The position numbers and the translations under genes are program-made. Of a DNA stretch of 52,286 bases, positions 7,362-9,859 are shown in pieces; positions within the stretch are counted from its first letter, which is position 1; each line of letters opens with the position of its first letter. The stretch spans positions 1-52,286 of the forward strand of contig JANWWH010000003.1 in NCBI GenBank assembly GCA_025056375.1, given 5' to 3'. The DNA comes from Aquificaceae bacterium (GTDB taxonomy: Bacteria; Aquificota; Aquificia; Aquificales; Aquificaceae). The notes below the pieces were generated by a model that had not been told where the DNA came from, ran no database searches, and saw only the letters and a list, made by a program, of their open reading frames with translations.

Positions 7362-8284
7362 AGGTCTCAGAGCTGGGGGAATTTGGTTTCATAGAAAGGA
7401 TAAAGAAAATACTTGAGAGTAAGGTTATAGGAGATGACACGGCGCCCATAAGGGTTGGAGACCGCACTCTACTCCTTACATGTGATGTGCTCCTACAGGA
7501 CAAACACTTTAAACTGACCTATCCACCCACCGCAGTAGGTTGGAAGGTCATATCTGTTAATGTGAGCGACCTGACTGCAAGCGGTGGCACACCTCTCTAT
7601 GCACTTGTCTCTCTGGTGCTTCCCGATATGGAAGTGGAATTTATGGAGGAGGTTTACCTTGGTATGAAAAAGGCTTGCGAATTTTACCGTTGTGAGGTGG
7701 TGGGTGGCAATGTGAGCAAGGGTGAAAGGCTCTGTATTGATGTGTTCATGTTGGGAGAAACGGGGAGATTTGTGGGTAGGCGGGGTGCGAAGAGGGGTGA
7801 CGGCGTTTTCGTCTCTGGAACTCTTGGAGACTCAAGAGCTGGACTTGAGCTTCTTCTTATGGAGAAGAAAAACTATGAGGACTTTGAGCTTAGGCTCATA
7901 GAAAAGCACCTAAGACCGACCGCCAGGGTTGACTTTTCAAAACACATATCCAAGTATGCCAACGCCAGCATGGACATAAGCGATGGACTCTCTTCGGACG
8001 CCCAAAAGCTGGCAAAGGCAAGTGGTGTAAAGCTCAGTCTGTTTTCGGAGAGAATTCCGCTTTCTCAGGAACTTCTCACTTTTTGCAAAAAGTACCGCAA
8101 AGACCCACTTTACTACGCCCTCTCCGGTGGAGAAGACTACGAGTTGCTCTTTACCCATACTCCAGAGAAACTAAACCCCTTTCTCAGCATGGTTCAGATA
8201 GGTGTGGTGGAAGAGGGTGAGGGCGTGTATCTGGACGGTAGCTACCTTGAGCCCACAGGCTTTGACCACTTTAAGGTGTTATAA
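7358..8284 (+). CDS. thiL: Thiamine-monophosphate kinase
   Basis: This is a 308-residue enzyme that phosphorylates thiamine monophosphate to the diphosphate cofactor. It belongs to the PurM/SelD-like ATP-binding superfamily. The N-terminal ELGEFGFIERI and GDDTAP motifs, the central NVSDLTASGGTPLYALVSL segment, GGNVSKGE and the SMDISDGLSSD loop are all diagnostic. The C-terminal SGGEDYELLFT completes the domain. The length is typical. No TPP riboswitch is visible upstream. It is the last gene before the tnpB element. Confidence 0.95.
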   Translation: MKVSELGEFGFIERIKKILESKVIGDDTAPIRVGDRTLLLTCDVLLQDKHFKLTYPPTAVGWKVISVNVSDLTASGGTPLYALVSLVLPDMEVEFMEEVYLGMKKACEFYRCEVVGGNVSKGERLCIDVFMLGETGRFVGRRGAKRGDGVFVSGTLGDSRAGLELLLMEKKNYEDFELRLIEKHLRPTARVDFSKHISKYANASMDISDGLSSDAQKLAKASGVKLSLFSERIPLSQELLTFCKKYRKDPLYYALSGGEDYELLFTHTPEKLNPFLSMVQIGVVEEGEGVYLDGSYLEPTGFDHFKVL

Positions 8285-8322
8285 TTTTCCTGTGTGGTCT
8301 TGGAAACTAATCATTCAATCTA

Positions 8323-8351
8323 TTGACAATTTTGGGCTTTTCTTGTAATCT
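8323..8351 (+). promoter_or_regulatory. Promoter of tnpB (TTGACA - 17 bp - TAATCT)
   Basis: A perfect TTGACA at 8323-8328 and a TAATCT at 8346-8351 are separated by 17 bases, with TG just before the -10. The -10 ends 8 bases before the tnpB ATG, so the mRNA would be leaderless. It is the only full consensus -35 that I noticed in the window. Confidence 0.6.
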
Positions 8352-8359
8352 ATCCTAAG

Positions 8360-9814
8360 ATGTTCAGGGCGATTGAAATCTGCACGGACTTAACCGAAAG
8401 GAAAAAGGCGGTCATAAGAGACGTTTTGACTTCCTACAGAAAAACCGCAAAGAAAGTCGCAAGCTACCAGTGGAAGCTATTTTTCCAGACGGGTGCTTTC
8501 AACAGAAAGGCTAATATAAAGCACCTTCAATCAGACCTATCAGAAAGATACAAATACACCGTTCAGTATCACGCCGTAGTGCCAGTCTTGGAAAGCTTTA
8601 TTTCTAACGTGCAAAACAGGTTCAAAGAGATAGTTCTCAACTCTTCCTTACCAGAGAAGAGGAAGAGAGTGCTTTTGTATCTAAACTCAAGAAGAGAATG
8701 GCTTTGGATAAGAAGTGAGAAAGCTTTGTGGATTAATGGCAACACAAAGCATGAGTATGAGATAACGCCAGAAGAAAGATTACTTGCTAAGAAAATATTC
8801 AAGCACATTTTAAAAAGGTGGAAAAAGCCAAATTTTAAAAAGGTAAGCCTTCTACTTGATAGCAAGTGTGGGCTTTTGGAAAGCCCAAAGAAAGCCAAAC
8901 ACTTTGACTACTGGATAAGGCTCTCTACGAAAGAAAAAGGAAAGCCTATCTATCTGCCAGTCAAACTTCACGAATACTTCCACTCAAAAGACGGAGAACT
9001 GAGTGGACTAATTCAGATATCTGAAGACGGCAGGATAAGACTTGTGAAGGAAGTAGCCGTTAAAATACTGGAACTCTCAGGAGAATTAGCCCTTGACTTT
9101 GGAATGGAGTGTCTTTTTGCCACAGACAGGGGCGACCTACTTGGAAGAGAGTTTTACTCAAAGGTCAAAGAGTATGCCCAGAAGATTGACAAACTTGGAA
9201 GAAATCTACAAAGACAGAAGATAAAGCCTTTACAAAGCAAGAGATATCAAAGGCTAAATCACAGGCTAAGCGAATACGTAAAGTCAGAAGTGAGGAGAAT
9301 TTTAAACAGGGTTGTGGCACTCTACAGACCTGCAAGGCTTGTGGTGGAAGACCTCAGATACTTTGTCAAGAGAGTGATAAATGGCTTTCCTAAGGCGGTA
9401 AAGAGAGTGCTTATAAGATTTGGGCTTGGCGAGATAAAGAGAAATCTACAAGAACTCCAAGAAGAGTATGGTATAGAAGTCCTATACGTCAATCCTGCCT
9501 ATAGTTCTCAGGCTTGTAGTAATTGTGGCTACTTGGATAAAGAAAATAGAAAGAGTAGAAACGAGTTTGAGTGTAAGTGTTGTGGTAGAAAACTTCACGC
9601 TGATGTGAATGCGTCAAGAAACCTGCTTGACCGTGTCAGGTGGGGGATGCGTTTATACGGCGTGAAAGAGGCCCTTGCCATTCAGGTTGAGAAGTTTTTA
9701 GAAAACTTGAGTAGTGAGCGGTATAAGTGCCTTTGGGGTAAGGCACGAGGCTTACTGGCAGGAATGCCTGCCACAGTCTCTGAACCCGAGACATGGAACA
9801 AATGTCCATGTTGA
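8360..9814 (+). CDS. tnpB: TnpB RNA-guided nuclease of an IS200/IS605- or IS607-type element
   Basis: This is a 484-residue TnpB, larger than the usual 370-430. Its split RuvC site has D246 in ALDFG, E330 in LVVEDL and D415 in HADVNASRN. The inserted zinc ribbon uses C386, C389, C405 and C408 (CSNC...CKCC). All catalytic and zinc residues are present and the frame is intact, so the protein may be active. The N-terminal region is rich in basic and aromatic residues, as expected for recognition of RNA and the transposon-adjacent motif. No tnpA or serine recombinase gene is adjacent, so the element cannot move by itself. It sits between thiL and a kamA-family gene. The last coding bases fold into hairpins that probably belong to the guide-RNA scaffold. 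Confidence 0.92.
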   Translation: MFRAIEICTDLTERKKAVIRDVLTSYRKTAKKVASYQWKLFFQTGAFNRKANIKHLQSDLSERYKYTVQYHAVVPVLESFISNVQNRFKEIVLNSSLPEKRKRVLLYLNSRREWLWIRSEKALWINGNTKHEYEITPEERLLAKKIFKHILKRWKKPNFKKVSLLLDSKCGLLESPKKAKHFDYWIRLSTKEKGKPIYLPVKLHEYFHSKDGELSGLIQISEDGRIRLVKEVAVKILELSGELALDFGMECLFATDRGDLLGREFYSKVKEYAQKIDKLGRNLQRQKIKPLQSKRYQRLNHRLSEYVKSEVRRILNRVVALYRPARLVVEDLRYFVKRVINGFPKAVKRVLIRFGLGEIKRNLQELQEEYGIEVLYVNPAYSSQACSNCGYLDKENRKSRNEFECKCCGRKLHADVNASRNLLDRVRWGMRLYGVKEALAIQVEKFLENLSSERYKCLWGKARGLLAGMPATVSEPETWNKCPC

Positions 9815-9859
9815 AGGATACTCTGAGAACACACCACACGAAAAACCCTTTAGTTTTTC
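9727..9859 (+). ncRNA. Probable omega RNA / right-end structured region of the tnpB element
   Basis: Four hairpins follow each other. Three are inside the end of the tnpB reading frame: 9727-9746 (stem GTGCCTT/AAGGCAC), 9756-9773 (TGGCAGG/CCTGCCA) and 9791-9811 (ACATGGA/TCCATGT). One lies after the stop: 9840-9859 (GAAAAAC/GTTTTTC). Each has a 7-bp perfect stem. The GGGT in the first loop could pair with ACCC at 9784-9787 as a pseudoknot. Omega RNAs of TnpB systems are known to be read from this position, overlapping the 3' end of tnpB and ending at the element border. The exact ends and the guide are not determined. Confidence 0.5.

What the first reader, a model, noticed from the sequence alone, without database searches (positions are those of the whole stretch)
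8323..9859. Intact stand-alone TnpB with a row of four hairpins at its 3' end (probable omega RNA)
All catalytic RuvC and zinc residues are kept in a 484-residue TnpB, with a strong promoter. Four 7-bp perfect hairpins run from 9727 to 9859, three inside the coding end, and a loop-to-linker GGGT/ACCC pairing could form a pseudoknot. There is no tnpA. A thermophilic TnpB with its guide RNA is of biochemical interest, and a lone tnpB may have been kept for another role.
Basis: partly seen in the sequence, partly recalled or inferred. Interest (0 to 1): 0.65.

Follow-up and report, generated by a model that had tools for sequence, protein, structure and literature searches.

The report
Lone TnpB gene with embedded guide RNA
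This is an intact jumping-gene nuclease (TnpB) from a heat-loving Aquificaceae bacterium whose guide RNA is folded out of the end of its own gene; it belongs to the known IS607 class of mobile elements, and related genomes also carry short gene-less versions that keep little more than the guide RNA.

Summary
Observation mostly confirmed; interpretation mostly right but mis-bounded. Window 8297-9823 is one mobile element: left end, an intact 484-aa tnpB (8360-9814) and a 219-nt structured RNA (9605-9823), of which 210 nt lie inside the coding sequence, starting at the codon after the third catalytic Asp. Nine related copies support the RNA: 71 pairs, 96.7% of cells paired, 25 pairs changed on both sides, 0 of 500 shuffles reaching this. 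The supported pseudoknot is SL1 loop GRGUA with the terminal UACUC, not GGGT/ACCC.

Empty sites in sister genomes show insertion at GTC, no target duplication, 2-bp TC core: the IS607 (serine recombinase) signature. The own genome lacks Y1 tnpA but encodes an IS607 transposase on another contig; a relative carries tnpA-tnpB with the same left end as its tnpB-only copy. So this is a tnpB-only IS607-type element, mobilised in trans. The presumed guide (from 9824) is unique in the genome.

Beyond the finding, relatives carry 254-297-nt tnpB-less derivatives keeping left end plus whole RNA. RNA production, GTC as TAM and cleavage are inferred.

The parts
8297..9823 (+). Whole tnpB-only element, left end GTCTTGG to right end GGATACTC
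   Evidence: Sharp loss of similarity at both ends between copies; empty sites of three related copies
8297..8299 (+). GTC at the left junction: insertion target; presumed TAM; TC (8298-8299) is the recombination core
   Evidence: GTC at 26 of 26 left ends and in the empty sites of three related copies
8323..8351 (+). Promoter-like stretch in the left end: TTGACA 8323-8328, weak -10 (8344-8349 or 8346-8351)
   Evidence: Read from sequence; TTGACA recurs in most tnpB-bearing and several tnpB-less relatives; not found by consensus scan
8360..9814 (+). tnpB, 484 aa, RNA-guided nuclease of the IS607/IS605 TnpB family
   Evidence: dN/dS 0.09-0.16 against relatives
9095..9097 (+). RuvC-I Asp246 codon
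   Evidence: Invariant in the 8-sequence alignment
9347..9349 (+). RuvC-II Glu330 codon
   Evidence: Invariant
9602..9604 (+). RuvC-III Asp415 codon; the RNA starts at the next codon
   Evidence: replaced by Gln only in G039
9605..9823 (+). Omega (right-end) RNA scaffold, 219 nt, 210 of them coding
   Evidence: Covariation: 71 pairs, 25 with changes on both sides, 96.7% of cells paired, 0/500 shuffles; fold z -5.26; lower pS in overlapping codons
9605..9656 (+). 5' two-part stem (9605-9615/9646-9656 and 9622-9631/9635-9644)
   Evidence: 12 of its 22 consensus pairs show changes on both sides
9674..9718 (+). Second stem
   Evidence: 17 consensus pairs, 6 with changes on both sides
9727..9746 (+).
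   Evidence: double changes UA to CG in L095 and L110
9747..9780 (+).
9786..9817 (+).
9736..9740 (+). SL1 loop GGGUA, proposed pseudoknot arm pairing with 9819-9823
   Evidence: All 5 pairs possible in 37 of 44 copies
9819..9823 (+). Terminal UACUC, proposed pseudoknot arm; 9822-9823 is the TC core
9824..9843 (+). Presumed guide, taken from flanking DNA (TGAGAACACACCACACGAAA)
   Evidence: By position after the right end; unique in the own genome with up to 3 mismatches
9840..9859 (+).

Best explanation
A tnpB-only IS607-type insertion sequence. An IS607 serine transposase (TnpA) supplied in trans inserts it as double-stranded DNA by exchange at a 2-bp TC core in a GTC target, with no target duplication. 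TnpB binds a 219-nt omega RNA made from the 3' part of its own mRNA (9605-9823) whose guide is the first bases of flanking DNA (from 9824). The RNP would recognise GTC plus guide only where the element is absent (empty allele or donor joint after excision); the element's own right end reads CTC before the same sequence and would be spared. Cutting the empty site lets repair copy the element back. SHOWN by sequence: boundaries, GTC/TC target in relatives, RNA structure by covariation, intact nuclease, IS607 linkage in a relative. INFERRED: the window's empty site, RNA production, GTC as TAM, guide use, cleavage, homing, and which TnpA moves this copy.
For: Element ends from copies. Empty sites in G036, G037 and G038 for three G036/G037 insertions: aagGTCttcaag empty, aagGTC-TTGG...GGATAC-TCttcaag occupied. 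GTC at 26/26 left ends. IS607 tnpA next to a tnpB with the same left end as a tnpB-only copy in G045; own-genome IS607 TnpA (NF033518 178 bits, cut-off 110). No Y1 TnpA in 13 of 14 genus genomes, own included. RNA covariation. Purifying selection on TnpB. Guide unique in genome. IS607 biology: no target duplication, GG core, TAM beside the left end (PMC6188088, PMC10711439, PMC11061315).
Against: No RNA or cleavage data. The published IS607 core is GG, here TC. The own-genome TnpA sits beside a left end unlike the window's, so it may not act on this copy; the contig ends 69 nt after tnpA. No empty site for the window copy itself: the thiL/ablA junction was not found in relatives. The guided_TnpB model scores 96.4, just under its cut-off of 100.
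Confidence: 0.85

Rival explanations
1. IS200/IS605-type element: the hairpins are DNA palindromes recognised by a Y1 transposase acting in trans.
For: TnpB occurs in both families; lone tnpB elements are common in IS200/IS605 (own knowledge); the right end is rich in hairpins.
Against: No Y1 TnpA in 13 of 14 genus genomes, own included. Insertion at a 2-bp shared core with no duplication, and an autonomous relative carries IS607 tnpA with the same left end as a tnpB-only copy. Structure extends 210 nt into the gene.
Confidence: 0.04
2. Domesticated lone tnpB: kept by the host as an RNA-guided regulator or defence nuclease, no longer mobile.
For: Single copy in this genome, intact and under purifying selection.
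Against: No tnpB at this place in the relatives examined; nuclease residues intact; guide matches only its own flank; relatives multi-copy and mobile. Selection acts while elements spread and does not need a host role.
Confidence: 0.07
3. Dying remnant: intact by recency, no longer expressed or mobile.
For: One copy plus one decayed right end in the own genome; G041 is full of degenerate fragments.
Against: Full-length ORF, all catalytic residues, intact ends and RNA; dN/dS 0.09-0.16.
Confidence: 0.15

Closest known systems
IS607-family elements (IS607, IS1535, ISXfa1, ISFba1) with TnpB and reRNA (PMC6188088, PMC10711439, PMC11061315)
   Same: Serine-recombinase tnpA in autonomous relatives, no target duplication, 2-bp core at both ends, TnpB with right-end RNA running into the flank
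   Different: TC core in GTC rather than GG; RNA scaffold almost wholly inside the tnpB reading frame; no match to any Rfam model; tnpA missing from this copy
ISDra2 TnpB-omega RNA (IS200/IS605; PMC8612924, PMC10278001)
   Same: TnpB family; guide taken from flanking DNA; TnpB reported to process its own mRNA into the RNA; related fold (8h1j, E=1e-8)
   Different: Different transposase family and target mechanism; little sequence similarity outside RuvC/zinc parts
Cas12f (AsCas12f, OsCas12f)
   Same: Best solved-structure matches by sequence and fold
   Different: CRISPR-associated; here the locus is a mobile element with its RNA in the right end

Membership tests
TnpB (RNA-guided nuclease of IS elements) | RuvC D-E-D triad and CxxC...CxxC zinc motif | tested here: met
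   D246, E330, D415, C386/C389/C405/C408
TnpB (RNA-guided nuclease of IS elements) | Structured RNA at the right end, ending at the element boundary | tested here: met
   Covariation in 9 copies, ends at GGATACTC
TnpB (RNA-guided nuclease of IS elements) | RNA-guided DNA cleavage with a TAM | not testable with these tools
   GTC inferred only from insertion sites
IS607 family | Serine recombinase TnpA | tested here: inconclusive
   Absent from this copy; present beside tnpB in G045 and G039 and on another contig of the own genome
IS607 family | No target duplication, 2-bp core shared by target and both ends | tested here: met
   Empty sites of three related copies; core is TC, not GG
IS200/IS605 family | Y1 (HUH) TnpA | tested here: not met
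   PF01797 absent from the own genome and 12 of the 13 other genus genomes
Known Rfam guide RNAs of TnpB or IscB elements | Match to a curated Rfam covariance model | tested here: not met
   No Rfam match to this RNA at gathering threshold over the window; only chance-level matches to other families at relaxed thresholds
TldR-type nuclease-dead regulators | Loss of RuvC catalytic residues | tested here: not met
   Triad intact in the window copy

The most novel reading that the evidence does not exclude
In this family the tnpB-less derivatives (254-297 nt: left end, usually with a promoter-like TTGACA, plus whole omega RNA and right end) are not just internal-deletion debris but mobile guide-RNA cassettes: each picks up a new guide from its flank and borrows TnpB in trans to protect or copy itself, so one TnpB would serve a family of guide-only elements. 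Evidence: such copies keep base pairs more often than expected from independent substitutions (G037m, G036m, G043m, G041m1-m4, p from 0 to 0.019). Against: part of that may be inherited from coding parents, and the G038 copies and one G041 copy have lost stems.
Probability: 0.28. Interest if true: 0.7.

Novelty: new member of a known kind. Interest (0 to 1): 0.46.

Why it matters
It gives a thermophilic TnpB-omega RNA pair with exact ends, an RNA outline backed by covariation, a predicted TAM (GTC) and guide, ready for assay. The RNA is written over the codons that follow the third catalytic Asp, a clear case of double coding (for example the Ser codon TCC or AGC matched by GGA or GCT on the other arm). 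The tnpB-less relatives offer a testable natural system for guide RNAs acting in trans.

Tried and rejected
IS200/IS605 membership (no Y1 TnpA). The fourth hairpin as part of the RNA (outside the element). GGGT/ACCC pseudoknot (ACCC is in the closing stem; loop reads GAGT in 25 of 44 copies). Rfam match to this RNA (none). Empty site of the window copy: thiL was not found beside ablA in the relatives examined, so none found. Viral contigs: no relative. Close relatives in genome contigs: only fragments from two MAGs. Empty sites for tnpB-less copies were not clean, because the flanks of two G038 copies look exchanged. First alignment A1 misaligned the variable inner stem of G036/G037; replaced by A2 and A5.

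Full report
WHAT IS THERE. The window is contig 33 of a 1.34-Mb, 82-contig genome; close relatives are MAGs titled Aquificaceae bacterium. ORF 8360-9814 encodes a 484-aa TnpB. Alignment with seven related proteins shows D246, E330, D415 and the four zinc cysteines present; a model (pLDDT 77) matches Cas12f and TnpB structures with E down to 1e-14 (AsCas12f), 1e-11 (ISFba1 TnpB) and 1e-8 (ISDra2 TnpB). The last 55 or so residues, encoded by the RNA-overlapping part, are mostly predicted with low confidence. It is the only tnpB of this family found in the genome.

ENDS AND TARGET. Copies in sister genomes lose similarity sharply at GTCTT (window 8297) and after GGATACTC (9823). For three insertions the corresponding empty site was found in a sister genome (L063 in G036; L068 in G037 and G038; L066 in G037): empty reads NNN-GTC-flank, occupied reads NNN-GTC-TTGG ... 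GGATAC-TC-flank. So there is no duplication and a 2-bp TC core is shared by target and both junctions. GTC stands at 26 of 26 left ends, usually after a purine (22/26). This is the IS607 pattern (no duplication, GG core in IS607 itself; PMC6188088) with a different dinucleotide. The window copy has no empty site to compare, because its thiL-ablA neighbourhood was not found in relatives; its ends are placed by homology. The predicted original site, GTGTGGTCTGAGAACACACCACAC, contains an inverted repeat.

WHO MOVES IT. Y1 TnpA (PF01797) is absent from the own genome and 12 of the 13 other genus genomes. Serine recombinases of IS607 type are present. In G045 one lies directly upstream of a tnpB whose protein is 69% identical to the window's over residues 1-220, and its left end is nearly identical to that of a tnpB-only copy in the same genome. 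The own genome has one on contig 57 (NF033518, 178 bits, cut-off 110), ending 69 nt before the contig end where another tnpB-like start appears (inference). Its left end differs from the window's, so which TnpA acts on this copy is open.

THE RNA. On nine tnpB copies (217 to 260 nt before the end) a consensus of 71 pairs is kept in 96.7% of cells, 25 pairs show changes on both sides, and no shuffle of 500 or slid register comes near. The 5' stem covers codons just after Asp415: copies with TGCATCC / GGATGCA and with TGCAAGC / GCTTGCA encode the same Ala-Ser there. Synonymous change is lower in the overlapping codons (pS 0.53, 0.50, 0.29 against 0.73, 0.74, 0.83 upstream). A separate eight-sequence set for the right end gives the same result. 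The SL1 loop (GRGUA) can pair with the terminal UACUC in full in 37 of 44 copies; this is conservation more than covariation, so the pseudoknot is probable, not shown. No Rfam family matches this RNA.

RELATED RIGHT ENDS. A covariance model of the right end finds 68 matches in 15 of 64 family genomes. In the own genome it finds the window copy and one decayed right end on contig 66. Many matches elsewhere have no tnpB: 254-297-nt derivatives with the same left end and the full RNA in G036, G037, G038, G041 and G043. They keep base pairs more than a simple null expects in seven of eleven cases, but G038 copies and one G041 copy have lost stems, and inherited pairing cannot be excluded. Two further copies (L075, L076) are simple internal deletions lacking the 5' stems.

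MECHANISM. IS607 TnpB proteins cut DNA with a TAM adjacent to the left-end flank and a guide from the right flank (PMC11061315, PMC10711439). By analogy TnpB here should cut GTC + TGAGAACACACC.., that is the site without the element. The occupied right end has CTC before the same sequence, so the G of GTC would separate self from target. The guide matches nothing else in the genome with up to 3 mismatches. Everything in this paragraph about the window's own TnpB is inference.

VERDICT. A well-preserved tnpB-only member of the IS607 kind with a gene-embedded omega RNA; ordinary in kind, useful in detail, with an open and more interesting question in its tnpB-less relatives.

Noticed in passing
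L009 / L150 (G039:C1:291425-292765, minus): TnpB beside its own IS607 tnpA has Gln in place of the third RuvC Asp (INAQVNSAKN), so it may be nuclease-dead.
   Followed up: no
L196, L197 (G038) against G036 and G037: Left and right flanks of two tnpB-less copies look exchanged relative to sister genomes, suggesting recombination between copies.
   Followed up: partly
L196, L197, L198, L199 (G038): Several right ends, three of them on nearly identical tnpB-less copies, yet no tnpB or TnpA was found in this 99% complete genome.
   Followed up: partly
L200 (G000:C66:43888-43981, minus): A decayed solo right end in the own genome, 26.5 bits with the covariance model.
   Followed up: no
window 8284-8299 joined to 9824-9850: The inferred pre-insertion site contains the inverted repeat GTGTGGT...ACCACAC; the element may have split a hairpin downstream of thiL.
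   Followed up: no
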